64,000 bases of DNA. Source: Burkholderiales bacterium (lineage in GTDB: Bacteria; Pseudomonadota; Gammaproteobacteria; Burkholderiales; Usitatibacteraceae). This document shows positions 22,250-38,560 of this stretch, piece after piece (within the stretch, counting starts at the first letter, position 1; every line of letters begins with the position of its first letter). The notes beneath the pieces were generated by a model. The model was given only the letters and a program-made list of their open reading frames with translations. It was not told the DNA's origin and did no database searches. The stretch is taken from contig JAHCLE010000001.1 in assembly GCA_026125445.1 (NCBI GenBank), positions 1-64,000 of the forward strand, given 5' to 3'. The position numbers and the translations under genes were made by a program.

Positions 22250-23028
22250 AGCCCCGCTCGCAGTGGCTCCTCTGGGCCGCGTCGCTGGCGGTCTACGGCT
22301 TCCTCTACGTGCCGCTGGCGGTCGTGGTGATCTTCTCCTTCAACGACTCGACGCTCAACGCCGAGTGGGTCGGGTTCACGCTCTCGTGGTACCGGAAGCT
22401 CATGACCGATGGCGAGATGCTGCGCGCGGCGGGCAACTCCGTGGCCATCGCGCTCCTGTCGTCTTCCGTGGCCACGGTACTGGGCGCCATGGCCGGCATC
22501 GCCATGCACCGCTACCGCTTCCCGTGGCTGCCGCTCCTGGTGCTCACCCCCGTGGCCATGCCCGAGATCCTGCTGGGCGTGTCGCTCCTGCTCTTCTTCC
22601 GCCAGGTGCTGGACCTCACGCTGGGCTTCTTCTCCATCCTCGTGGCCCACATCACCTTCTCCATCGGCTTCGTGGCGGTGATCGTGCGCGCGCGGCTCGC
22701 GGGGATGGACGAGGGCATCTTCGAGGCGGCGCGCGACCTGGGGGCGACGCCCTGGATGACCTTCCGGCGCGTGACGCTTCCGCTCATCCTGCCGGCGCTG
22801 GTGGCGGGATTCCTCATGAGCTTCACCCTCTCCATCGACGACTTCGTGATCACCTTCTTCGTGGCGGGGGTGGGGGTGACGACGCTTCCCCTTCAAATCT
22901 ATTCGATGATCAAGGTGGCGGTGACGCCGGAGGTGAACGCGGTCTCCACGCTCCTCATGGCGCTCACGCTCACGCTGGTGATCGTGGCCACGCGGGTCGC
23001 CCCCGACATCGTGCGGAGGGGCCGGTGA
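22246..23028 (+). CDS. potC: Polyamine-type ABC transporter permease 2
   Basis: 260-residue inner-membrane permease, GTG start within the potB stop. VVIFSFNDSTLNAEWVGFTLSWYRKL is typical of PotC/PotI. The EAA loop is EAARDLGATPWMTFRRVTLPLILPAL, followed by FTLSIDDFVITFFVAG. It is translationally coupled to the binding-protein gene by a further GTGA overlap. Confidence 0.9.
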   Translation: MKPRSQWLLWAASLAVYGFLYVPLAVVVIFSFNDSTLNAEWVGFTLSWYRKLMTDGEMLRAAGNSVAIALLSSSVATVLGAMAGIAMHRYRFPWLPLLVLTPVAMPEILLGVSLLLFFRQVLDLTLGFFSILVAHITFSIGFVAVIVRARLAGMDEGIFEAARDLGATPWMTFRRVTLPLILPALVAGFLMSFTLSIDDFVITFFVAGVGVTTLPLQIYSMIKVAVTPEVNAVSTLLMALTLTLVIVATRVAPDIVRRGR

Positions 23029-24083
23029 GGCGCCTTCTCGCGGCGGTCGTGGCGGCGGTCGCCCTGCCGGCGACGGCCGAGGACGTCCTCTACCTCTACA
23101 ACTGGAACAACTACATCAGCGAGGAGACCGTCGCTCGCTTCGAGCGGCACTGCGGCTGCCGGCTCAAGCAGGACTACTACTCGGACAACGAGGAGATGCT
23201 CGCGAAGCTCGAGGCGGGGGCGGTCGGCTACGACGTGCTGGTACCCACCGGGAACGCCGTCGAGACGCTCATCCGGCAGGGGGCGCTGCGACCGCTCGAC
23301 AAGTCCCTGCTGCCCAACCTCGCGAACCTGAAGCCGGAGTACCGCGACCTCTGGTACGACCCGGGCGGGAAGTACTCCGTGCCCTACGCCTACACCGTCA
23401 CGCTGATCGGCTACAACCGCGAGAGGATGCGCGAGCTTGGGCTGCCCACGGACACCTGGGCACTCGTCTTCGAGCCGCGCTACCTGGAGAGGATCAAGGG
23501 CAAGGTCACCGTGCTCAACAGCCATCGCGAGCTCCTGGGCGCGGCGATGCGCTACCTCGGCCATTCCGTGCAGGAGCGCAACCCGGCGCGCTGGGAGGAG
23601 GCCAAGGCCGTGATCCTGCGGGCGAAACCCTACTGGGCGGCGTTCTCCAACAGCACCTACATCAAGGACCTCGCCATCGGCAACATCTGGGTGGCGCACG
23701 GCTACTCCAACGACATGTTTCGCGCGCGCGAGGACGCGAAGGCGGCGCGGCGGCCCTTCACGATCGGATTCGAGACGCCGAAGGAGGGGGCGGTCATCGC
23801 CGTCGACGGCTTCGTGCTGCACAAGTCGGGCCGGCGCCCGGACCTCGCCCACAAGTTCATCGACTTCATGCTCGAGGGACGCAATGCGGCGGACGTCTCG
23901 AACCTCATCGGCGCGGGCAACCCCAACGCGGCGGCGATGGCCTTCATCGATCCCGCCATCGCCGGGGAGCGGGCCATCTTCCCGACGGCCGCAGACCTCG
24001 CGCGGCTGGAGACCGTCCGCGACTTCGACCCCGCCCTTCGCCGCACCCTTTCCCGCCTGTGGACCGAGATCAAGGTCCGTTGA
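23025..24083 (+). CDS. potD: Polyamine-type periplasmic substrate-binding protein
   Basis: 352 residues with a short signal peptide (cleavage near ATAEDV). The mature start VLYLYNWNNYISEETVARFE is diagnostic for PotD/PotF. DVLVPTGNAVETLIRQG and YSVPYAYTVTLIGYN line the ligand cleft. The paired cysteines CGC near residue 43 are unusual. It delivers substrate to the potABC complex. Putrescine versus spermidine cannot be decided here. It is the last gene; a 26-nt palindrome follows at once. Confidence 0.9.
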   Translation: MRRLLAAVVAAVALPATAEDVLYLYNWNNYISEETVARFERHCGCRLKQDYYSDNEEMLAKLEAGAVGYDVLVPTGNAVETLIRQGALRPLDKSLLPNLANLKPEYRDLWYDPGGKYSVPYAYTVTLIGYNRERMRELGLPTDTWALVFEPRYLERIKGKVTVLNSHRELLGAAMRYLGHSVQERNPARWEEAKAVILRAKPYWAAFSNSTYIKDLAIGNIWVAHGYSNDMFRAREDAKAARRPFTIGFETPKEGAVIAVDGFVLHKSGRRPDLAHKFIDFMLEGRNAADVSNLIGAGNPNAAAMAFIDPAIAGERAIFPTAADLARLETVRDFDPALRRTLSRLWTEIKVR

Positions 24084-24109
24084 CGGGACGGTTCCGCGGA
24101 ACCGTCCCG
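24084..24109. repeat. 26-nt perfect palindrome after potD
   Basis: Self-complementary without a loop; each half reads CGGGACGGTTCCG. It starts with the first base after the potD stop and lies 30 bases before tRNA-Ser. It probably acts as transcript end or stabiliser, although no T-run follows. Confidence 0.75.
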
Positions 24110-24139
24110 CGGGCCCGCCGTGGTAGAATCCGCGTTCCC

Positions 24140-24233
24140 GGAGAGATGACCGAGTGGCCGAAGGTGGCGCCCTGCTAAGGCGTTATGCGGGCTTAAACCT
24201 GCATCGAGGGTTCGAATCCCTCTCTCTCCGCCA
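24140..24233 (+). tRNA. tRNA-Ser(GCU), integration target
   Basis: 94-nt class II tRNA. Acceptor arms GGAGAGA / TCTCTCC, discriminator G, encoded CCA. Anticodon loop CTGCTAA gives GCU. There is a long variable arm and a TTCGAATCC T-loop. Its 3' end doubles as the left attachment repeat of the element that follows. Confidence 0.95.
24217..24233. repeat. Left attachment repeat (attL)
   Basis: TCCCTCTCTCTCCGCCA, the last 17 bases of tRNA-Ser(GCU), recurs exactly at 32345-32361. This fits tyrosine-integrase insertion into a tRNA 3' end that keeps the tRNA intact. Confidence 0.9.
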
Positions 24234-24300: not shown

Positions 24301-26028
24301 GTGAGCCAGAAGCCCGGAGGCTCACGCGTGAAACTCGCATCCCACCTGAAGTGCTCCCCGTTCGGGGTCTATTACTTCCGCCTTGTCGTGCCGAAGCGGC
24401 TTCGCCCGTCGTTGGGCGGCCAAACCGAGGTCAAGCGCTCGCTTCGCACCAAGGACCCCGCGCTTGCCCGAAGGCGCGCCTATATACTTTCGGCACGCCT
24501 AGACAACTGGCTACAACAAGCGAGCCGCGTCATGACCGATACCCCCAGCGAACGGCGCAAGATCCTCGAACGTTATCGCGATTCACTGCTGCGCGAGATC
24601 GACTCATACATGGGCTATCGATACTCGGACATGGTGTTTACAGAACGCGGCTATGAGATGAAGCGCTCGGCGCACACAACGGCGGAGCTTCAATCCCTCA
24701 TACACCAACTCGAATCTCTCGAGAAGACGTTAGCCACCCTCGATGGCCCCACAGTCCCTGCGACGGAACCGCCACCCCACCCGGCGCAGGGCACAAGGCT
24801 TTCCGTTGCCGTAGATGCTTACCTATCGCTTGAACGAGCCGGAAAGACGGTAGTGAAGACGAAGATGGCGGTCGAGAAGGCACTCGCACGCTTCCGGCAG
24901 TGGATTGCCGACCTGGCAAACGCCCCCGGCTCTACCGTCACGTCTGCAACGGGCGCACACATCGCAAGACTCGAAGCGGACCCGTTGCTCGCGACAATAG
25001 AGCCGCAGCACATCGTCGCGTATATGCACCACATGCTGCAGAACGAAAGCGCCGGACGAGGCGGAGCCGCAAGAAAGGCGAGTGCCGAGGGAGCGGACGG
25101 AAATCGCGGACTATCGAAGGCGACAACGTATAAAGAACTTGGCTTTCTCAACGGCTTCTTCGGAGCCATGCAGAGGCATGCCTATTTCCCGAAGACAATG
25201 CCGGTCCCCACAAGGGACGTATCTCCGTATAAGCGAGGAGAGAAGAAGCGCAGCGTTAGACAGACGCGCTACCTCCCCTTTGAAAGACAGGAACTGGCGA
25301 AGATATTCGACCCGTTCGCGCTTGGAGCCCTACGAAAGCCCCACGAGTTTTGGGTGCCATTGCTAGGTCTCTACACGGGTGCCAGGCTCGACGAGTTGTG
25401 CCAGTTGCGTCTTCAGGACATTCAACGCGATGGCGGACGCCTCGTAATCGCGATAACGCACACTGACGACACCAAGACCAAGACGACGGGCTCCGAGCGG
25501 CTCGTGCCGCTTCACGATGAGTTGTTGAGCCTCGGCTTCGATACCTACGTGGCGGACGTCCGACAGGCCGCAGGCGACGAGGCACGCCTATTCCCCTACC
25601 TGCTTCGCACGGTCAACGGATATGCCGACGTGCCTTCGGAAGCCTTTTCGCGGTATCTCGACAAGGTGGGCATCACAAGCGAGCGCAAGACGTTTCACTC
25701 GTTTAGAAGCACGATCAACGAAGCATTCGCCAGGGCTGGCGTTGCCGAGGAGGCTCGCAGTCAGTTATTGGGCCACGCGTATGACACGACCAACTTGACG
25801 CACTACGGCAAGGCGATGCAGACGGAAGAACTGTATAGCGCCACGCTCGCGAAAATCACTTTTCCTGCCGTAGTGGAGGCAACGCCAGCGCTCCGGTATC
25901 GCGCCGGGCAGTTTTCAGCCGTTCTCCATAGCGAACTTGAAAGACGCCGCGCCAGCGAGGAAAACCGCAAACTTCGCCAGCAGAAGGGGCTTCCCCCCCT
26001 TCGCTCCGCAAAGAAGACGAAGGCTTGA
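24301..26028 (+). CDS. int: Tyrosine-family site-specific integrase
   Basis: 575 residues, GTG start. Catalyses integration and excision between attP and the tRNA 3' end. The N-terminus (GVYYFRLVVPKRLRPSLGG, then SLRTKDPALARRRA) is the arm-binding module common in proteobacterial island integrases. The core-binding helices lie at about 170-310. The catalytic domain (about 335-520) shows Arg in TGARLDELCQLRL, HSFRS (His and Arg II), GHAYDTTNLTHYGK with the probable nucleophilic Tyr. A basic tail (residues 530-575) follows. It lies 67 bases after the tRNA and points into the element. Confidence 0.93.
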   Translation: MSQKPGGSRVKLASHLKCSPFGVYYFRLVVPKRLRPSLGGQTEVKRSLRTKDPALARRRAYILSARLDNWLQQASRVMTDTPSERRKILERYRDSLLREIDSYMGYRYSDMVFTERGYEMKRSAHTTAELQSLIHQLESLEKTLATLDGPTVPATEPPPHPAQGTRLSVAVDAYLSLERAGKTVVKTKMAVEKALARFRQWIADLANAPGSTVTSATGAHIARLEADPLLATIEPQHIVAYMHHMLQNESAGRGGAARKASAEGADGNRGLSKATTYKELGFLNGFFGAMQRHAYFPKTMPVPTRDVSPYKRGEKKRSVRQTRYLPFERQELAKIFDPFALGALRKPHEFWVPLLGLYTGARLDELCQLRLQDIQRDGGRLVIAITHTDDTKTKTTGSERLVPLHDELLSLGFDTYVADVRQAAGDEARLFPYLLRTVNGYADVPSEAFSRYLDKVGITSERKTFHSFRSTINEAFARAGVAEEARSQLLGHAYDTTNLTHYGKAMQTEELYSATLAKITFPAVVEATPALRYRAGQFSAVLHSELERRRASEENRKLRQQKGLPPLRSAKKTKA

Positions 26029-26204: not shown

Positions 26205-27530
26205 ATGAGCACATCAGTACAACTTCAAATGTTTGACGACATCGCCGCACCAGGCGAATTTGCGGCAAAGGACGAATTGCGCTCGGCGCGTTCGGGAACA
26301 TTCACCGATAACATGAAGTTGCCAATACATCGGTGGTTTCGCTATTCGGCGGGATTTTCCGCTGAATGGGCGGAAGATCTAATTCGCTCGCACGCTCAAG
26401 GTCGACATATTCAAGTCTTGGACCCATTTGCTGGGTCCGGAACAACACTCTTGGCGGCCGAGGCCGCAGGCGTGTCGTCAGTGGGATACGAGAGCCACCC
26501 GTTCGTCTCACGAATTGCGCGGGCAAAGCTTCACTGGAACGCGGTGACTCCAGAGGGCCTAACTGATGCGATCGTGGACCTGGTTAATCGCGCAAGAGCG
26601 GACAAGGGTCGCAGCGCTCCGAACGCATCCCCTTTGCTTAATAAATGCTTCACGAACGATTCACTCGCAAGCCTCATAAGGCTACGGGACTGCTTCTTGA
26701 CTTCGCCACCCCGCGATGCGCCATTGAGAGAGCTCGTTTGGCTGTCTTTGACCGCGATACTCCGGTCGTGCAGTCATGTTGGCACCGCGCAATGGCAGTA
26801 CGTCTTGCCGAATAAGAAAAAGGCCTCTACCGTCGAACCATTTCAGGCACTGATGATGAAGGCAGCCGACATTTCGCAAGACATCACGTTTGCAAAGAAT
26901 TCCGGGTTCTCGACAAGCGCCGAGGTTTTGGACCAGGACGCGAGACTACCCTCTTCGTTGCCGCCTAACTCAATCGACCTAATCGTTACATCCCCTCCCT
27001 ATCCAAACAACTACGATTACGCGGATGCGACACGGCTAGAGATGACATTCTGGGGCGAAATAGAGTCGTGGGGGGACCTTCAGGGTGCGGTGCGCCGTCA
27101 CATCATTCGGTCATGCTCACAGCACAGCGCAGCCGAAAGGCTAGATCTTGATGACCTTCTGGCGCGCCCGGAAGTCGCCCCAATACGGAATGGACTTGCA
27201 GCCGTTTGTCGTGAACTCGAAGTTGTAAGGCTCACAAAGGGCGGTCGCAAGACCTACCACACAATGATCGCGGCATACTTTCTCGATCTCGCCAACGTGT
27301 TTAACTGTTTGCGTGCTGTATGTAAGAAGGGGTCCCGTCTGTGCTTTGTCATTGGAGATTCTGCCCCTTATGGAGTACATGCCCCGGCCGACCAATGGCT
27401 TGGTCAACTTGCGCAGGCAGCAGGCTTTAAGTCCTTCTCGTTCGAGAAGTTGAGGGATCGAAATATTAAGTGGAAGAATCGGAAGCACAGGGTTCCGTTG
27501 CAGGAAGGTCGACTTTGGATCGAGGGCTAA
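26205..27530 (+). CDS. DNA methyltransferase (N4-cytosine/N6-adenine type)
   Basis: 441 residues. Transfers a methyl group from SAM to an exocyclic base amine. Motif I is LDPFAGSGTTLLAAEAAG (about residue 75) and the catalytic motif IV is TSPPYPNNYDY (about 262). The order I then IV, and TSPPY, lean to N4-cytosine, but N6-adenine is possible. No target-recognition domain is recognised, although the middle region (120-240) and the end are candidates. It is the first gene of a compact three-gene operon; the nuclease-like gene starts 6 bases after its stop. Its low G+C relative to the chromosome marks it as cargo. Confidence 0.88.
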   Translation: MSTSVQLQMFDDIAAPGEFAAKDELRSARSGTFTDNMKLPIHRWFRYSAGFSAEWAEDLIRSHAQGRHIQVLDPFAGSGTTLLAAEAAGVSSVGYESHPFVSRIARAKLHWNAVTPEGLTDAIVDLVNRARADKGRSAPNASPLLNKCFTNDSLASLIRLRDCFLTSPPRDAPLRELVWLSLTAILRSCSHVGTAQWQYVLPNKKKASTVEPFQALMMKAADISQDITFAKNSGFSTSAEVLDQDARLPSSLPPNSIDLIVTSPPYPNNYDYADATRLEMTFWGEIESWGDLQGAVRRHIIRSCSQHSAAERLDLDDLLARPEVAPIRNGLAAVCRELEVVRLTKGGRKTYHTMIAAYFLDLANVFNCLRAVCKKGSRLCFVIGDSAPYGVHAPADQWLGQLAQAAGFKSFSFEKLRDRNIKWKNRKHRVPLQEGRLWIEG

Positions 27531-27536
27531 TGACAA

Positions 27537-28412
27537 ATGGCCACCTCACCCTCTCACAAGTTTGGTCAGATCATCGGCGATCTGCTTGAAGAGATCATGA
27601 CGCCTCAATTTGAGGAGTTCTGCGTTAAGCGTGGGCTTTATCTCGACAAGAAGGGGGAGCGGGGAGCTGCGCGAGATGGCAAGAAGGTTACTTGGGAGGA
27701 CAAATTCGGCAATCTCCACGATCTCGACTTTGTCATAGAAAAGGACGGCACAGAGAGCGTGCGTGGACGCCCCCTTGCCTTTATCGAGGCGGCGTGGCGG
27801 CGGTATACCAAGCACTCAAGAAACAAGGCACAAGAAATTCAGGGAGCAATTCTTCCGATCGCGGAGAAATACGACTGGGACAAACCATTTCTTGGTGCTG
27901 TACTTGCCGGAGTATTTACAGATGGCTCTCTTTCCCAAATGAAGTCCTCGGGCTTCGAGGTGATGCTATTTCCCTACGAGACCATCACAAGCGCATTCGA
28001 TGCCGTAGGCATTGATGCCAAATTCGACGAGGACACGCCCGACGCGACATTTGCAGAGTCAATCCGCATGATTGAGGCTCTGCCCAAGGCGTCTCGAGCA
28101 CGTCTAAAACATCACCTAGTTGCGGCCAACAGACCAGTTCTGGAGAGCTTTTTTAAGCAGTTAGAAGCGACATTAGATCGACGCATTCAATCGATAGTTC
28201 TTATTCCACTCCACGGCATTCAAAGCGAGTTCAAGACAATTGCCGATGCAATTGCGTTCATAAGTGGATATGACCAGCGGTTAGGCGGAGACGGCGGTTT
28301 TCGAAAGTACGAAGTAATTGTCCGCTATAGCAACGGCGACAAGATAGATGCGTCATTTGGTGAGAAAGCCGAAGCAGTTCACTTTCTACGATATGTCGAG
28401 GGAGCTAACTGA
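27537..28412 (+). CDS. PD-(D/E)xK-like restriction endonuclease candidate
   Basis: 291 residues. The probable nuclease core is at about 45-110: HDLDFVIEKDG supplies an Asp and RPLAFIEAAWRRYTKHSRNK a Glu with following basic residues, which resembles the E-x-x/K variant of the PD-(D/E)xK fold. KAQEIQGAILPIAEKY is the helix after the core. The remainder (GGFRKYEVIVRYSNGDKIDASF) may recognise DNA. It sits directly after the methyltransferase and overlaps the next start by one base (TGATG), the layout of a type II restriction-modification pair. The fold is inferred from motifs, not from full alignment. Confidence 0.65.
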   Translation: MATSPSHKFGQIIGDLLEEIMTPQFEEFCVKRGLYLDKKGERGAARDGKKVTWEDKFGNLHDLDFVIEKDGTESVRGRPLAFIEAAWRRYTKHSRNKAQEIQGAILPIAEKYDWDKPFLGAVLAGVFTDGSLSQMKSSGFEVMLFPYETITSAFDAVGIDAKFDEDTPDATFAESIRMIEALPKASRARLKHHLVAANRPVLESFFKQLEATLDRRIQSIVLIPLHGIQSEFKTIADAIAFISGYDQRLGGDGGFRKYEVIVRYSNGDKIDASFGEKAEAVHFLRYVEGAN

Positions 28413-28933
28413 TGCCGACCTACTTCTTCGGGGTTGCTTCGAGCAGTGAACTCTCGAAGCCTGATACGGTAGAAAGCTACTGGTGCGTGCCGCAGGATGC
28501 CGAGAGGGGAGACGTAATTCTTCTCTATTGTCCGAGATCTGCAAGCAGAGTGCGCCAGGGGGTATTTGCAGAAAGTATCATCACGTCCGCCCCGATTGCT
28601 GGCGCCCCGATGAATGCGCTGTGTTCTGGGTATGGCATCACGACACTTCGCCATGTTCGAATTAAGATCACCGCGCGATTCACGCCAACTGTCACGGCCC
28701 AGGATATGAAATGTGATCCCGTCCTGAAGAACGCCGGAGTTGTTCTCAAGAACTTCCAGGGCACCACCTTTCGAATTGGTGAGTCACTTTATCAGCGCAT
28801 CCTGCAAATTGCACTCCGGAAAGCAGGCGGCGGAACGGGTAAGCAGGCATTGCGGAAACGGCCTTCATTGACTCGCTCAAAGAGGTCCATCAAAGAGCCA
28901 GTGAAGGCGTCCATGTCAGGCCGAAAGCATTAA
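28412..28933 (+). CDS. EVE/PUA-like domain protein, putative modified-base reader
   Basis: 173 residues. Residues 1-145 have the EVE pattern: an early TYFFGVASSSEL strand, ESYWCVPQDAERGDVILLYCPR (GD turn typical of EVE), a mid-domain strand RVRQGVFAESII, and a terminal FRIGESLYQRILQIA helix. A basic tail (KRPSLTRSKRSIKEP) follows. EVE domains are known to bind modified DNA or RNA bases and are often coupled to defence nucleases. Its one-base overlap with the nuclease gene implies it works with the methyltransferase and nuclease, for example to restrict or enforce the modification mark. Confidence 0.6.
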   Translation: MPTYFFGVASSSELSKPDTVESYWCVPQDAERGDVILLYCPRSASRVRQGVFAESIITSAPIAGAPMNALCSGYGITTLRHVRIKITARFTPTVTAQDMKCDPVLKNAGVVLKNFQGTTFRIGESLYQRILQIALRKAGGGTGKQALRKRPSLTRSKRSIKEPVKASMSGRKH

Positions 28934-29326: not shown

Positions 29327-29608
29327 ATGAACTCGAAAAACAACCTGGGGCTAACACCCAAGAGCAACGCGTCGCAAAGCGGCGAGCAATACAAGGTAAT
29401 AAGCATCAAACTTCGCGTCTCTCCCGAGTTTCACACTCGCTGGAGCCGTGCGATGAAGCAGGTATCACGGCATTACTCCGGCGGAGCATCGGCGGTAGTT
29501 CTTGACGCCCTTGAGGAGCGGCTTCCGGAGATTGAAGTGCTCGCTGCGGCCAGTTCGCAAGGCGCCGCGTCCACGAAGGGCGCTAGCCCCCGGAAAGGAG
29601 GTGCCTAA
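29327..29608 (+). CDS. Small ribbon-helix-helix-like protein
   Basis: 93 residues. The middle KVISIKLRVSPEFHTRWSRA reads as a beta strand followed by a helix, and GGASAVVLDALEERLPEI as a second helix, the general RHH layout. The ends are polar and low in complexity. In mobilizable elements such proteins often help the relaxase at oriT or repress it. It overlaps the next gene by one base (TAATG). Function is inferred from size and place. Confidence 0.5.
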   Translation: MNSKNNLGLTPKSNASQSGEQYKVISIKLRVSPEFHTRWSRAMKQVSRHYSGGASAVVLDALEERLPEIEVLAAASSQGAASTKGASPRKGGA

Positions 29609-30126
29609 TGGGTGATATCAAAGGAGCGAAGAGCGCATGTGCGTGGCTGCTACGCACAAATGCCTCGAACAACCAATTTGCGTCGCACCTCGACACGCTG
29701 CTTCAGGAAGTGACCGGCCTAACGACGGACGAACTTCAAGCAGACTATGAGCAAGGCGCCGAACAGAGCCTCGTAAACCTTCTGTTCGATCTCTGCGAGA
29801 AGTTGCGAGACCCCAAGAGAGACAAGGCGTTTGTGGATGATGACGAACGACTTCGGGCCCTACACGGGAGCCTTTGTGTTGACCGCATTGCTCATTACCG
29901 ACTAAAACTCAAACTTCAGCCTCTCGGCCCGTCGGAGGTGAAAGATCAACGGCAGCAACAGCGGGAGAGAACTACGGGAGCGCAGGCCGGCGGGGGGCTT
30001 CCGAAGAGTTCGCAAGTGCTACCGCATGGCGCGGTATCAGGTCAGGCCGCAACCGGACCCACTCGAACCATGAAGGACAGACTGAAGAAGTTGAGGACCG
30101 ACAAGGATGGGCTTCGGAACAAGTAG
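29608..30126 (+). CDS. Small element-encoded protein, unknown function
   Basis: 172 residues; family not recognised. A strong GGAAAGGAGGT site precedes the ATG, which overlaps the stop of the previous gene. The N-terminal 100 residues are mostly helical and acidic (LTTDELQADYEQGAEQSLVNLL); the last 70 are basic, Gln/Gly-rich and probably disordered. It converges on the relaxase gene and is followed by a terminator. A mobilization accessory or plasmid-type copy control role is possible but unsupported. Confidence 0.6.
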   Translation: MGDIKGAKSACAWLLRTNASNNQFASHLDTLLQEVTGLTTDELQADYEQGAEQSLVNLLFDLCEKLRDPKRDKAFVDDDERLRALHGSLCVDRIAHYRLKLKLQPLGPSEVKDQRQQQRERTTGAQAGGGLPKSSQVLPHGAVSGQAATGPTRTMKDRLKKLRTDKDGLRNK

Positions 30127-30178: not shown

Positions 30179-31972
30179 TTACAGGTCCGGAGAAGGAGAA
30201 GGGCGCCGGTAGCGGGGCATTGCGTGTGCGTTCGCCGCGTTCCGCTGTGCTGCGAGTTCGTCCTTCCAGGTGGGTTCCCAAGGGGCTTCAATGGCTACTT
30301 CGGGCAGAGGGGCAATGAGGCTGTCCCGAAGTGCGATTGCCATGTCTGGCTCCGTAATCGCAAGCGTGGTGCGTCGATGGCGTCGGCTGGCCGCTCGCAC
30401 AATGGAAACCACACCCCGAAGCGCCACACCGCCAACGGCATAGACCCATCCGCAGAGCGGCCGGAGCGCACGAAGACAGAGGGCTTCGATTGCATTTGAG
30501 GCAACCAGCGCTGGCAATGTTCTTGGAGCAGACGGCGCGGGCGGCAAGACGAATGCCGCCTCCGCGCCGCGACGATAGATGACAGGCTTGTCGTCAAGCG
30601 TGTGAACTTCGGCGCCGATGACCCGGCCATTGTCGTCGCGGCACGCAAAAACGGCGCTGCCGTAGCGATCTGCGTAGAGGTCGCCGCACGTCACCACTTC
30701 GTCAATGACCGCCGGCGGAATGCCGTGGACGCTGGCAAGCGTCTCCTTCATGGCGGCGAGGTTTAAGCCGGAGGGCGCCGGCACCGGCAGCGCAGTAGGT
30801 TTGGCCGCAAAGGTCGCGGCCTCGTCTCTTGCCGTCCGAACGGCTTCCCCCACGGCCTCCGATGCTCCGAACTCCTTCGAGAGCCACCTAACGGCAGCCT
30901 CGTAGTCCACATCCTCGCAGTGCTTTACCAGGTCGATGGCGTTTCGTCCCTTGGCCCCGGTCAGTTCCTCGCGGAAGGTTCCGCTGTGCGTCTTGTAGCG
31001 ACGCCCCGGCAGTTGCCAGGTATCCCCATCGGGGCCTTGAACGGCGCCGAGCCGCTTTAGCACCGCGGGAAGCGCAATTGCGCGGACTTCGGCGGCGGTG
31101 TCTCGTAGTTTCGCCAGAGCCTGGGACCGCGCTTCATCGTTCTTCACGAGCAAGTCGTGCGCCGCTGCTTTGGCGGCGAGGACCTTGACGTATTCCGCTT
31201 GCTCCTGCGCGGCGGCCGAGGCGCCTGCCCGAAAGGCGCCGATGGCGTAGCGGCGCATTGCGTCATCGTCGAGACGGTCAATTTTGCCGGGCATGACCGG
31301 AGCGCGGGGTTTGAGTGCGGCAGGTTTCGTAGGCTCCACCGTCGCGTGGGTCGCCTCGTAGTGCTGCCGAACTTCGACGTGGGAAGCCTTCGACCCGCGA
31401 AGCCCGCGACCGATGCCAAGAGGCTTACACGCCTCGGCGTAGGCGTCTTGGAGGCGAACCAGGTTCTGGCGATTGAAAAGCGACTTCGCGTTGAGATTGC
31501 CCGAGGGGTCAAAAGGCATCACGAAGACGTGGCAGTGCGGCGTGCTTTCCTCCTCGTGGAGAACGACGGAGACGAGGTTTGCGCCGAAGTAGTCGCGGGC
31601 GAAAGCGGTAGCGGCTTCCTGCCAGGCTTTGGCTCGGGGTTTGTCCCACTCGCCGGGTTTTTCGTCGTGGGGTCGGAAGTATTCGGGCGAGGCGGTCAGC
31701 AGCAACTCGACGCACACGACGGGGTCGCGTGCCATGCGAGCGCCGCGCACCTTTCGCGGCGCGGCGAGTTTTCGGGCTTTCCAGGCATCGAAGCGCGCCG
31801 AGACGGTATCGAGAAACGCCTTCGCCGTTGACGAGCCGTGTAGCGGTGTAATCGAGCCGCCAGGGTCGGCATTCGGTACCGGCGCAGTGCGGAAGTTGTG
31901 CCCGGCTGCCTTCTTGAGGTCGCGTTGGTGAAGTTTGGAAACGCGACAAATCGCGAGGGGGTGCTTTTTCAT
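30179..31972 (-). CDS. MobV-type relaxase fused to primase/Toprim-like module
   Basis: 597 residues. Nicks oriT and pilots the transferred strand. Pre/Mob motifs lie at the N-terminus: ICRVSKLHQRDLKKAAGHNFR and PNADPGGS (residues 8-36), then the metal-binding LHEEESTPHCHVFVMPFD (about 137-154) and a following helix NLVRLQDAYAEACKPLG. Residues about 315-375 resemble the N-terminal part of mobile-element primases (DTWQLPGRRYKTHSGTF, then AIDLVKHCEDVDYEAAVRWL) but without zinc cysteines. The 430-560 region (GDLYADRYGSAVFACRDDNG) looks Toprim-like/DUF3991. A strong AGGAGG site precedes the ATG. The oriT-like hairpin lies just upstream. Confidence 0.82.
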   Translation of the reverse strand: MKKHPLAICRVSKLHQRDLKKAAGHNFRTAPVPNADPGGSITPLHGSSTAKAFLDTVSARFDAWKARKLAAPRKVRGARMARDPVVCVELLLTASPEYFRPHDEKPGEWDKPRAKAWQEAATAFARDYFGANLVSVVLHEEESTPHCHVFVMPFDPSGNLNAKSLFNRQNLVRLQDAYAEACKPLGIGRGLRGSKASHVEVRQHYEATHATVEPTKPAALKPRAPVMPGKIDRLDDDAMRRYAIGAFRAGASAAAQEQAEYVKVLAAKAAAHDLLVKNDEARSQALAKLRDTAAEVRAIALPAVLKRLGAVQGPDGDTWQLPGRRYKTHSGTFREELTGAKGRNAIDLVKHCEDVDYEAAVRWLSKEFGASEAVGEAVRTARDEAATFAAKPTALPVPAPSGLNLAAMKETLASVHGIPPAVIDEVVTCGDLYADRYGSAVFACRDDNGRVIGAEVHTLDDKPVIYRRGAEAAFVLPPAPSAPRTLPALVASNAIEALCLRALRPLCGWVYAVGGVALRGVVSIVRAASRRHRRTTLAITEPDMAIALRDSLIAPLPEVAIEAPWEPTWKDELAAQRNAANAHAMPRYRRPSPSPDL

Positions 31973-32344: not shown

Positions 32345-32361
32345 TCCCTCTCTCTCCGCCA
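32345..32361. repeat. Right attachment repeat (attR)
   Basis: Exact copy of the 17-base tRNA-Ser(GCU) 3' end at 24217-24233. Similarity stops on both sides, so 17 bp is the crossover core plus target identity. Confidence 0.9.
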
Positions 32362-32490
32362 CCGATACCTTGGCGCTCGGCAGGGATGCCCGGCGGCCCG
32401 CTCGTGCAGGGCCAGCCCTCGTGACCCGAAGGCGAGAGGGAACTACCCGGGGAGAATGCGGTCCCCCCCTTTATCGTCCTCGCAAGTCCG

Positions 32491-34887
32491 ATGCGAATGA
32501 CCCGCTCGTTGATTCTTCGCCTCCTCCTGCTGCTCCTGTCGGCCCTTGCGTCGACGGCGTTCGCGGCGGACCGAGTCTATTCCTTCGAGTCGTTCGAACC
32601 CCGGGCAAAGGCCACGGAGACGCTGCGCCTCGCGCCGGGTGCCGGAATGGCCGTCCGCATCGATCTCGGCGAGGTCGACGCCGGTCGCATCGCTGCGGCC
32701 AAGGAAGCGAACGCGAATCAGTTCCTCAAGAGCTTGCAGATCGGCGTGGACCGCCCCGTTGCCGGGACCGCCCAGGCGCGCGCAACGGCGCTGCGCTGGC
32801 AACGCGTCGAAGGCGGCGCGGCCGCCCACTGGGAAGTCGTCTCCAAGGACGCCCGCGCCCTGCGCGTGGGACTCGCCGGTTCCGGCCTTCCCGCCGGAGT
32901 GCAGGTGCGCTTCGCGGCGGCAGCCGAGCCGGGCGTCGTCTACGGGCCCTTCGACGCCGCGGAGATCGAGGCGAATGGCGGACGCTTCTGGAGCCCCGTG
33001 CTGGAAGGCGAGCGCGCCCTCGTCGAGGTCTTCGTCCCGGATGGCGCGGGCAGGGACCTGCCGCTCGCGGTATTCCGCGTCGACCACCTGTTCGCGAGCC
33101 CCAAGGATGCCGACATGGAAGCGCTGGCGAAGGCTTCCGGCGCATGCCAGGTGGACGTCATCTGCCGCAGTGCCACCGACACCGCTCTTGCCAGCACCAG
33201 CCGGGCGGTGGCGCGCATGACGTACTCGGATGCCTCCGGCACCTATTCCTGCACGGGCACGCTCCTCAATACGAGCATCGGCCCGGTGGCGCCGTACTTC
33301 TACTCGGCGGCACACTGCATCTCGACGCAGGCCCAGGCGAACACGCTCACGACGCACTGGTTCTACGACCGTGCGGGTTGCGGCACCGGCGGCACGAGCT
33401 CCGCCTACGTGCAACTCGCCGGCGGTGCGACCCTGCTCCACGCCGACGCTTCCACGGACGTGCTGCTCCTCAAGTTGCTGCGCGCGCCGCCGGCGGGAGC
33501 CGTGTACAACGGGTGGGACAGGGCAACGCCCGTCACCGGAACGGCCGCCACGGCGGTGCACCACCCGATGGGCGACCTCAAGAAGGTGAGCCTCGGCAGC
33601 CTGGGAGGTTTCAGCGGCTACTTCGCGGGGGGCGATACACACCTCGTCGTCCGCTGGAATTCCGTCGCGACCGGCACCACGGAAGGTGGCAGCAGCGGCT
33701 CCGGCGTCTTCACCTTCGCGGACTCGCAGTACCTGCTGCGCGGAGGCCTGCACGGCGGCCCGTCCAGCTGCACGGCCTCGTCCGTGGACCTCTTCGACTA
33801 CTATTCGCGCTTCGATCGCGCCTACGCGGTCCTGTCGCAGTACCTGGATCCGCTCCTGACCTGCAACTACGCTCTCGCGCCGACCGGCGCATCGGTTGGT
33901 TCCGGATCGGGCTCGGGTTCGTTCGCGGTGACGGCGACCTCGGCCTGCCCGTGGGTGGCGGTCAGCAACGCAGGCTGGATCACCAGCAGCAGCAGCGGGA
34001 ACGGCAGTGGGACGGTGACGTACTCGGTGGCCGCGAACCCCGGCGCGGCGAGGTCGGGCACGATTTCCGTCGGCGGGCGCACCTTCACCGTTTCGCAGGC
34101 GGGGGCCTCCACGACCAACTACACGGGCCTGTGGTGGAAAGGAGAGGAAGAGTCGGGCTGGGGCATCAACTTCGCCCACCAGGGCGACGTCGTCTTCGGG
34201 ACGCTGTACACGTACGACAACGCCGGCGCGCCCCTGTGGCTCTCCGCCACGATGTGGCTGCAGTCGGGCTCGACGTACTCGGGAGTGCTCTATCGCACCC
34301 GCGGGCCGGCCCTCGACGCGGACCCCTGGCCACCCGTCACTTACCCGCAGGACTACACGGAAGTGGGCACGATGACGGTCACGTTCTCGGGCGCGGACGC
34401 CGGGACTCTCAGCTACAACGTGGGTTCCAGCCGCGTCTCCAAGCCGATCAAGCGCATGATCTATGGCAGCCGGTCGTCGTGCACGTCCACGACGGGGAGC
34501 AGGATTTCCGCGACCAACTACCAGGACCTCTGGTGGAACAAGGACCAGCCCGGGTGGGGCGTCAACCTCACGCACCAGGACAGCACGATCTTCGCGACGC
34601 TCTACACCTACGACGACAGCGGCCGCGACCTGTGGCTCTCGTCCACCGGGTTCTTCCAGGGCGGGCGGACCTATTCGGGCGACCTGTACCGCACGACGGG
34701 GCCCGCGTTCGACGCCAATCCCTTCACGCCCATCACCTTCCCGCAGAACTACACGAAGGTCGGCACGATGACCTTCACCTTTGCGGATGGCGTCAGCGGG
34801 ACCCTGAGCTACACCTACAATGGCCGACCGGTGACCCGGTCCATCACCCGCATCGAATTCGCGAGCCCGTTGCCGGTCTGCCAGTAG
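32491..34887 (+). CDS. Exported trypsin-like serine protease with C-terminal repeats
   Basis: 798 residues with a signal peptide (cleavage near TAFAADR). The propeptide-like region is at about 25-215 and the chymotrypsin-fold domain at about 220-455. His is in FYSAAHC, Asp in ASTDVLLLKLL, Ser in GTTEGGSSGSGVF; this matches the lysyl-endopeptidase-like branch. A BACON-like beta sandwich (about 465-540, CPWVAVSNAGWITSSSS) follows. Two copies of a roughly 120-residue module complete the protein (LWWKGEEESGWGINFAHQGD and LWWNKDQPGWGVNLTHQDS), each ending near SRVSK or RPVTR. The repeats may bind a surface or glycan. It is the first chromosomal gene beyond the element. Confidence 0.88.
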   Translation: MRMTRSLILRLLLLLLSALASTAFAADRVYSFESFEPRAKATETLRLAPGAGMAVRIDLGEVDAGRIAAAKEANANQFLKSLQIGVDRPVAGTAQARATALRWQRVEGGAAAHWEVVSKDARALRVGLAGSGLPAGVQVRFAAAAEPGVVYGPFDAAEIEANGGRFWSPVLEGERALVEVFVPDGAGRDLPLAVFRVDHLFASPKDADMEALAKASGACQVDVICRSATDTALASTSRAVARMTYSDASGTYSCTGTLLNTSIGPVAPYFYSAAHCISTQAQANTLTTHWFYDRAGCGTGGTSSAYVQLAGGATLLHADASTDVLLLKLLRAPPAGAVYNGWDRATPVTGTAATAVHHPMGDLKKVSLGSLGGFSGYFAGGDTHLVVRWNSVATGTTEGGSSGSGVFTFADSQYLLRGGLHGGPSSCTASSVDLFDYYSRFDRAYAVLSQYLDPLLTCNYALAPTGASVGSGSGSGSFAVTATSACPWVAVSNAGWITSSSSGNGSGTVTYSVAANPGAARSGTISVGGRTFTVSQAGASTTNYTGLWWKGEEESGWGINFAHQGDVVFGTLYTYDNAGAPLWLSATMWLQSGSTYSGVLYRTRGPALDADPWPPVTYPQDYTEVGTMTVTFSGADAGTLSYNVGSSRVSKPIKRMIYGSRSSCTSTTGSRISATNYQDLWWNKDQPGWGVNLTHQDSTIFATLYTYDDSGRDLWLSSTGFFQGGRTYSGDLYRTTGPAFDANPFTPITFPQNYTKVGTMTFTFADGVSGTLSYTYNGRPVTRSITRIEFASPLPVCQ

Positions 34888-34981
34888 TCGCCGGCCGCCG
34901 GGCCCGCCGCCGGCGGGAAATCGGGCAAGATGCGCGTTGGCTCCGGCCCGCGCCACTCCCTTCTGCCCCCGCATCCCGCCC

Positions 34982-36091
34982 GTGCTTACCTTCACCCCCT
35001 CCCTCCACGGCCTCCGTGGGATCGCGGCGCTGGCGGTGCTGGCATTCCACTGGTCCGAGTATTTCCCGGCCCTGCCGACCGCGCTGCGCCGGGTGCCGTT
35101 CGCCGGAACCACCTGGGACCTCGCCATGCAGTTGGGCTTCGGCTGGCTCGGCGTCTACCTGTTCTTCGTGCTCTCGGGCTACCTGCTCGCCTCCCAGCTC
35201 GCGACGCAGTCCCTTTCCGGCCCGTCGGTGCTGCAGTTCTGGCGCCGGCGGTTCCTGCGCATCTTCCCCGGCGTCTGGTTCCAGGTTGCGATACTCGTCG
35301 TCCTGTCCTGGCTCGGCATCGCCCTGATCGCGCCATTCACGGGCACGCAGGTGCTCATGAACCTGATGCTCTGGATCAACATGCCCCCGTGGATGCAGCC
35401 GCCCCTCAACGGCGTGTACTGGACGCTGCCCATCGAGTTCTCCTTCTACCTCGCCCTGCCATTCATCGTCGCGATCCAGCGCCGCGTCGGATGGCGGACG
35501 ACGTTCGTCATCGCCCTGCTCATCGCCCTCGCGTGGCGGGCAGGCGTCATGGCGGCCTATCGCGGCGACCACATGGTGAGTCGCCTACCGATCCTCGACG
35601 CGCTGCCGGGCTCGCTAGCGAGTTTCATGGCCGGAGTGGCCATCTCGAACGTGGAATGGTCACCGACGCCCGCCCGGCGCCGGGCCTTCATCGCGTTGAT
35701 CGCCGCGGCGCTCCTCGCCATGGAGTACTGGCTTCTCGCCAACCGCGACACCTACTGGACGGGGCACTGGATGCTGGCCATCTGGAATCCGGTGGTCTCG
35801 GTCATCATCGGGCTGGGCGTTCTCGCGCTGCTGCGTCCGCCGCCGGAGCTCGCCTTCCTGGGCCGGCGGGAGCTCGTCTGGCTGGGCGAGGTGAGCTACG
35901 GGATCTACCTTTGGCACCTCCCCGCGATCTACCTCGTCAGGATGGTCGGCGGCGAGTCCCTCAATTCGCCGGCCGGAAGCGGGATCGCGCTCGTCGCGAC
36001 GGTCGCCATCACGCTCGTCATGGCGGCGTTGAGCTTTCACCTCGTGGAGCGACCCATGATGCGGCTCGGCAAGCGGGCGAGGGAAGCCTAG
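34982..36091 (+). CDS. Acyltransferase family 3 membrane protein
   Basis: 369 residues from a GTG at 34982; a TTG at 34937 is an alternative. About ten hydrophobic segments. The N-terminus FTPSLHGLRGIAALAVLAFHW carries the family LRG and catalytic-type His. Further motifs are VYLFFVLSGYLL, RRFLRIFPGVW, YWTLPIEFSFYLALPF and SYGIYLWHLP. Such enzymes transfer acetyl or other acyl groups to envelope sugars (O-antigen, peptidoglycan). The target is unknown; no polysaccharide cluster is adjacent. Confidence 0.9.
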   Translation: MLTFTPSLHGLRGIAALAVLAFHWSEYFPALPTALRRVPFAGTTWDLAMQLGFGWLGVYLFFVLSGYLLASQLATQSLSGPSVLQFWRRRFLRIFPGVWFQVAILVVLSWLGIALIAPFTGTQVLMNLMLWINMPPWMQPPLNGVYWTLPIEFSFYLALPFIVAIQRRVGWRTTFVIALLIALAWRAGVMAAYRGDHMVSRLPILDALPGSLASFMAGVAISNVEWSPTPARRRAFIALIAAALLAMEYWLLANRDTYWTGHWMLAIWNPVVSVIIGLGVLALLRPPPELAFLGRRELVWLGEVSYGIYLWHLPAIYLVRMVGGESLNSPAGSGIALVATVAITLVMAALSFHLVERPMMRLGKRAREA

Positions 36092-36118
36092 CGGCGGCTC
36101 CGGGACGAGAACCGGCCG

Positions 36119-36316
36119 TCACTTTTCCGGCATGCGGAGCTGCCACAGGTCCTCGTGCCTCATGTGCAGCAGGGGCTGCATGGCCAACAGCCCCGTTTGC
36201 CAGGTGCTGGATTCGAGGATACGCATCTCGGCGAACTTCTCCTTCGTGCCCTCGTCGACGGGCACCTCGAAACCGCTCCCGCGCATCATGGGGATGCCCC
36301 TGCGGTGCAGGGCCAT
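36119..36316 (-). pseudogene. Detached duplicate of the 3' end of a PrsW-like gene
   Basis: A 65-codon frame whose protein, from SGFEVPVDEGTKEKFAEMR to LLHMRHEDLWQLRMPEK, closely matches the last 65 residues of the intact protein at 38622-39635 (SGFEVPVDEATREKFAEMR ... LHMSHKDLWQLYMLGK). The nucleotides match too. Homology stops about 20 bases before the katG stop. It has no ribosome site of its own and is read as a remnant. The most likely origin is a duplication in which katG now separates the copies. Confidence 0.7.
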
Positions 36317-36337
36317 CCCCGCGGACGGGGGAGCCGG

Positions 36338-38560
<2,223 letters not shown>

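What the first reader, a model, noticed from the sequence alone, without database searches (positions are those of the whole stretch)
26205..28933. Methyltransferase / PD-(D/E)xK-like nuclease / EVE-like reader operon: possible new modification-linked defence system
Three genes are coupled (6-base gap, then TGATG overlap) and carried as element cargo. Methyltransferase motifs are clear. The nuclease motif (DLDFVIEKDG ... FIEAAWRRYTKHSRNK) and the EVE-like protein are inferred. An EVE reader beside a type II-like pair suggests the reader senses the methylated or otherwise modified base, guiding cleavage or blocking it. I do not recognise this trio as a named system.
Basis: partly seen in the sequence, partly recalled or inferred. 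Interest (0 to 1): 0.75.

Follow-up and report, generated by a model that had tools for sequence, protein, structure and literature searches.

The report
Type II restriction-modification pair with EVE-like gene
A mobile DNA element carries an ordinary two-gene restriction-modification defence (a DNA methyltransferase and a matching DNA-cutting enzyme distantly related to NcoI-type enzymes), with an extra coupled gene that resembles a modified-base reader and was not found beside its relatives.

Summary
The three coupled ORFs are real and sit at the stated coordinates. The first two are an ordinary type II restriction-modification pair. The methyltransferase matches a PADLOC MTase_II model end to end (3.7e-123), and the second protein matches a PADLOC REase_II model end to end (1.6e-67). 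The REase family is distantly related to R.PamI, whose system has NcoI specificity in print. An AlphaFold model (pLDDT 86.5) has a PD-(D/E)XK fold, closest to BstEII and BsoBI. The MTase directly precedes the REase in 13 of 13 relatives in public genomes and is fused to it in 3. The third gene is a divergent EVE (PUA-like) domain. The Pfam hit is below cut-off, but an EVE profile built without it finds it at 7e-5. It is absent from all 18 other REase-bearing loci examined, and no close homologue was found in the genomes searched. The trio is therefore not a recurrent system. It is cargo of an 8.1-kb integrative, mobilizable element in tRNA-Ser(GCT), bounded by a 17-bp repeat and missing from that tRNA in two relatives of the genus. 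Verdict: a new member of a known kind, plus one possible accessory reader known from this locus only, whose role is inferred, not shown.

The parts
26205..27530 (+). Type II amino-methyltransferase (N4-cytosine or N6-adenine), 441 aa
   Evidence: PADLOC MTase_II PDLC03306 3.7e-123 over residues 26-441; Pfam N6_N4_Mtase 2e-14; motifs DPFAGSGTT and TSPPY
27537..28412 (+). Type II restriction endonuclease of the PD-(D/E)XK superfamily, distant kin of R.PamI, 291 aa
   Evidence: PADLOC REase_II PDLC03525 1.6e-67, residues 1-285; AlphaFold pLDDT 86.5; BstEII Z 10.2, BsoBI Z 9.5; MTase directly upstream in 13 of 13 genome relatives
28412..28933 (+). Divergent EVE (PUA-like) domain protein with basic C-terminal tail, 173 aa; overlaps the REase stop by one base
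   Evidence: Pfam EVE E 0.13, below cut-off; EVE profiles built without it find it at 7e-5 and 1.1e-8; bridge through L023
24140..24233 (+). tRNA-Ser (GCT), integration target
   Evidence: ARAGORN
24217..24233 (+). left 17-bp att repeat, 3' end of tRNA-Ser
   Evidence: exact repeat, next copy at 32345
32345..32361 (+). right 17-bp att repeat
24301..26028 (+). tyrosine integrase of the element
   Evidence: Pfam Phage_integrase 6e-13, DUF6538 1.8e-16
30179..31972 (-). MobV relaxase of the element
   Evidence: NCBIfam MobV 9e-31, above cut-off; Pfam Mob_Pre 4.9e-21

Best explanation
This is a conventional type II restriction-modification system carried by a tRNA-Ser-integrated mobilizable element. 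The methyltransferase marks a short site; TSPPY suggests N4-cytosine, as recalled, and this is not shown. The PD-(D/E)XK endonuclease cuts unmarked copies of that site, which protects the element and its host from phage and competing DNA and makes loss of the element costly. The coupled EVE-domain protein is a later local addition. The most likely reading is that it is an optional addition and not a required part: either an accessory that binds modified bases or unrelated cargo. Shown here: family membership of the two enzymes, nuclease fold, gene order, EVE homology and element boundaries. Inferred: site specificity, activity, and every role of the EVE protein.
For: Full-length PADLOC type II models for both enzymes. 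MTase immediately upstream of the REase in 13 of 13 genome loci, fused in one ORF in 3 of them (L007, L008, L011); same order in an Erwinia plasmid and in genome G005. Sequence link to R.PamI (7e-21; cross-hits between the two REase models), whose system has NcoI specificity (passages of PMC3925955). Restriction-enzyme fold. No EVE-like product in 18 other REase-bearing loci. Element evidence: att repeat, integrase, MobV, element missing at the tRNA in two relatives.
Against: No activity is shown. The position two residues after E84 is not lysine in any row of A1, so the active site is not a textbook (D/E)XK; a displaced lysine (K92 or K97) is assumed. The one-base overlap between the REase and the EVE-like gene suggests co-translation, which fits a functional unit better than a chance neighbour.
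Confidence: 0.85

Rival explanations
1. The trio is one functional system: the EVE protein recognises modified bases in phage DNA (for example hydroxymethylcytosine) and recruits the type II nuclease to them, while the MTase protects self DNA.
For: One-base overlap with the REase gene; EVE homology; EVE proteins are reported as standalone neighbours of type I R-M systems with a similar proposal (passages of PMC7641849); EVE domain in the nuclease VcaM4I (passages of PMC12707154).
Against: 0 of 18 other loci with this REase family have an EVE-like product nearby. No close homologue of the EVE protein in 398 phylum, 28 family and 399 order genomes other than the window's own.
Confidence: 0.2
2. 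The EVE-like gene is unrelated element cargo (or the remains of another defence gene) that happened to land after the REase and has no part in restriction.
For: Locus-specific occurrence; long basic C-terminal tail with no significant family match.
Against: Tight TGATG coupling; the reading frame has been kept open.
Confidence: 0.4
3. The EVE-like protein regulates the pair, for instance by sensing the methylated site or RNA and timing expression of the REase.
For: Position at the 3' end of the operon; EVE belongs to the PUA group, which includes RNA-metabolic proteins (passages of PMC12707154).
Against: No direct evidence; relatives do without it.
Confidence: 0.15

Closest known systems
PamI (plasmid pAMI7, Paracoccus aminophilus), type II R-M with NcoI specificity
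   Same: REase homologous over residues 4-180, 30.9% identity, 7e-21; MTase gene directly upstream
   Different: PamI pairs the REase with a gene annotated as DNA cytosine methyltransferase; here it is an N6/N4 amino-MTase. No EVE gene there.
PADLOC type II models PDLC03306 (MTase) and PDLC03525 (REase)
   Same: both matched nearly full length
   Different: no third gene
Erwinia aphidicola plasmid p3_N2_6 MTase plus 'hypothetical protein'
   Same: same pair and order, REase 41.6% identity
   Different: no EVE-like ORF
Standalone EVE beside type I R-M; DCD-methyltransferase with PD-(D/E)XK (Bell et al. 2020, PMC7641849, passages)
   Same: PUA-like modified-base reader next to restriction genes
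   Different: type I partner, or DCD domain fused to the MTase; here a separate EVE gene beside a type II pair
VcaM4I EVE-HNH endonuclease (passages of PMC12707154; start of abstract of PMC7897488 in a search listing)
   Same: EVE-type reader
   Different: single fused modification-dependent HNH nuclease with no MTase partner mentioned in the text seen

Membership tests
Type II restriction-modification | DNA methyltransferase of a type II family | tested here: met
   PDLC03306 3.7e-123; N6_N4_Mtase
Type II restriction-modification | cognate endonuclease adjacent, recurring as a pair | tested here: met
   PDLC03525 1.6e-67; MTase upstream in 13 of 13 loci
Type II restriction-modification | same-site methylation and cleavage | not testable with these tools
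   needs biochemistry or a methylome
PD-(D/E)XK nuclease | fold of the superfamily | tested here: met
   BstEII Z 10.2, rmsd 2.9, 137 aligned; BsoBI Z 9.5, rmsd 3.2, 145 aligned
PD-(D/E)XK nuclease | D...(D/E)XK residues | tested here: inconclusive
   D62, D64, E68, E84, H93 and K97 invariant in A1 (10 rows), but no lysine two after E84
NcoI/PamI specificity (CCATGG) | recognition of CCATGG | tested here: inconclusive
   0 CCATGG in the 8128-bp element against 2.5 expected; rank 8 of 64 palindromes, not singled out
EVE domain | match to EVE profile | tested here: met
   Pfam direct hit below cut-off (0.13); EVE profile without it finds it at 7e-5, divergent profile 1.1e-8; bridge L023 over Pfam cut-off
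EVE domain | PUA-like barrel with base pocket | tested here: inconclusive
   single-sequence model has pLDDT 38, not usable
Conserved MTase-REase-EVE system | trio recurs in other genomes | tested here: not met
   0 of 18 other REase-bearing loci

The most novel reading that the evidence does not exclude
A type II R-M pair has taken on a translationally coupled EVE reader as an accessory subunit, so that the same nuclease restricts both unmethylated DNA and phage DNA with modified bases, with the self mark set by the MTase and not read by the EVE domain.
Probability: 0.15. Interest if true: 0.55.

Novelty: new member of a known kind. Interest (0 to 1): 0.25.

Why it matters
As it stands it is an ordinary restriction-modification cargo of a mobilizable element, with a modest point of interest: one REase superfamily is paired with two unrelated MTase classes (amino-MTase here, C5-cytosine MTase in L021 and a gene annotated as a cytosine methyltransferase in PamI). 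If the EVE protein really extends the pair to modified DNA, it would be a two-part answer to phages that hide their DNA by base modification.

Tried and rejected
Recurrent trio: rejected. Coverage is limited: L006, L007 and L012 are truncated, L020 and L021 carry short flanks, and L018 and L022 are the same Erwinia system. Site prediction by palindrome depletion: no clear answer. Structure of the EVE-like protein from a single sequence: useless, pLDDT 38. Sequence search of the REase in solved structures: one chance hit only, E 1.8; of the EVE-like protein: chance hits only, best E 0.39. Viral contigs: no relative of the EVE-like protein or of the REase. Phage records: only weak hits (E 0.2 or worse) of the EVE-like protein, to Propionibacterium phage B5 relatives, taken as chance. 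Plasmids: no match of the EVE-like protein. Weak order-level hits L024 and L025 (E 0.007 and 0.009) were looked at and not used; L051 (6e-4, one stop) was not followed. The own-genome hits L015 and L016 (E 0.07 and 0.2) and L027-L030 (E 0.27 or worse) were taken as chance. A direct hhalign of the EVE-like protein against three housekeeping EVE proteins gave nothing (E 0.34), and with L023 added only 0.085; these count against a close link to that EVE branch. Only 3 of the 12 fetched EVE loci L031-L042 passed the script's motif filter and entered those profiles. Plasmid hits of the Nostoc EVE protein were listed but their neighbourhoods were not examined.

Full report
Observation. The three ORFs exist as described: MTase 26205-27530, a 6-base gap, REase 27537-28412, and a third ORF 28412-28933 whose ATG overlaps the REase stop by one base. 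The third ORF is open over 173 codons; 10 of 20000 mononucleotide shuffles are.

Methyltransferase. Pfam N6_N4_Mtase 2e-14; PADLOC MTase_II PDLC03306 3.7e-123 over residues 26-441. Motif I-like DPFAGSGTT at residue 73 and TSPPY at residue 262. The nearest solved proteins are a putative modification methylase and cytosine-N4 methyltransferases, over about 60 residues. That TSPPY points to N4-cytosine is recalled, not tested.

Nuclease. No Pfam or NCBIfam match, but PADLOC REase_II PDLC03525 matches at 1.6e-67, residues 1-285, and PDLC03541 at 7.5e-25. The R.PamI gene product of pAMI7 scores 734 bits on PDLC03541 and also hits PDLC03525 at 4.3e-25, so the two are related families. PamI is described as a type II module with NcoI specificity (passages of PMC3925955; the primary paper was not read). 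Ten sequences (the window's and nine relatives) align with invariant D62, D64, E68, E84, W87, R88, R89, H93 and K97. AlphaFold on ten sequences (A2) gives pLDDT 86.5, pTM 0.83. Foldseek has no match under 1e-3; the best are AF1548 (1.4e-3) and BstEII (4.1e-3). VIA-align puts BstEII (Z 10.2) and BsoBI (Z 9.5) first, with NucC, BbvCI, SgrAI, PspGI and NgoMIV below. The fold is PD-(D/E)XK; the exact catalytic set is not settled.

Recurrence. One scan of the collection of 84,980 species genomes with six peptide patterns gave 13 loci with the REase, 46-70% identical. In 13 of 13 the MTase lies directly upstream, and in 3 (L007, L008, L011) the two are one ORF. L003, L006 and L012 show broken REase frames. 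Of 398 phylum genomes, 3 have the REase, the window's own included; G005 has the same MTase-REase order and G052 has a C5-cytosine methylase upstream. Of 28 family genomes only the window's own has it. Erwinia plasmids carry the pair.

Third protein. Direct Pfam EVE match E 0.13, below cut-off. In 399 order genomes the best other match is L023 (8.1e-5), part of a 575-aa protein that itself hits EVE above cut-off at 2.9e-6; single-sequence hhalign of the two gives 8.4e-6. L026, a Nostoc EVE protein (5.6e-18), is also weakly similar (8.7e-3). Profiles built from EVE proteins without the window's protein find it at 7e-5 and 1.1e-8 and find nothing under E 1 in the 18 other REase-bearing loci. Against this, housekeeping EVE proteins alone do not pick it up and the single-sequence model is unusable. 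No close homologue was seen in 398, 28 and 399 genomes besides its own, in 72,556 plasmid records or in viral contigs. A profile search of 369 class genomes gave one other weak hit (L051).

Element. The 17-bp 3' end of tRNA-Ser(GCT) recurs exactly at 32345, giving an 8128-bp element with integrase and MobV relaxase. Its G+C is lower than the flanks. In G404 the tRNA is followed after about 54 bases by sequence matching window 36337 onwards; in G402 the match to window 22500-24233 ends at the tRNA, and sequence matching window 36335-36841 follows after about 1 kb of other DNA. The element is therefore missing at that tRNA in both, and the stretch 32362-36336 is also missing in G404. In G399 (L046) the tRNA is followed by yet other DNA.

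Reading. A type II R-M pair of a known kind. The published precedents seen for EVE beside restriction genes are type I systems and fusions (passages of PMC7641849). Two paper searches (6 and 10 papers listed) showed no title describing a standalone EVE gene beside a type II pair, but the papers were not read in full, so this is a weak statement. The accessory-reader idea stays open at low probability because it rests on one locus.

Noticed in passing
window 32362-36336: A serine-protease-like ORF (32491-34887) and an acyltransferase-like ORF (34937-36091), named by eye, lie between the right att repeat and sequence that closely follows the tRNA in G404; a second insertion or a variable region.
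   Followed up: partly
L007, L008, L011: MTase and REase of this family are fused into one ORF of 727-731 aa in three cyanobacteria.
   Followed up: partly
L021:380-2412, L017:4863-6909: Relatives of the REase sit behind a C5-cytosine methylase (L021) or a gene annotated as DNA cytosine methyltransferase (L017), not an amino-MTase: one REase superfamily with two MTase classes.
   Followed up: partly
L023:601-2325: 575-aa protein with a central EVE domain and a C-terminal part that looks like an HsdR-type nuclease domain (by eye, no Pfam hit).
   Followed up: no
window 29327-30126: Two small coupled ORFs in the element without significant family matches.
   Followed up: no
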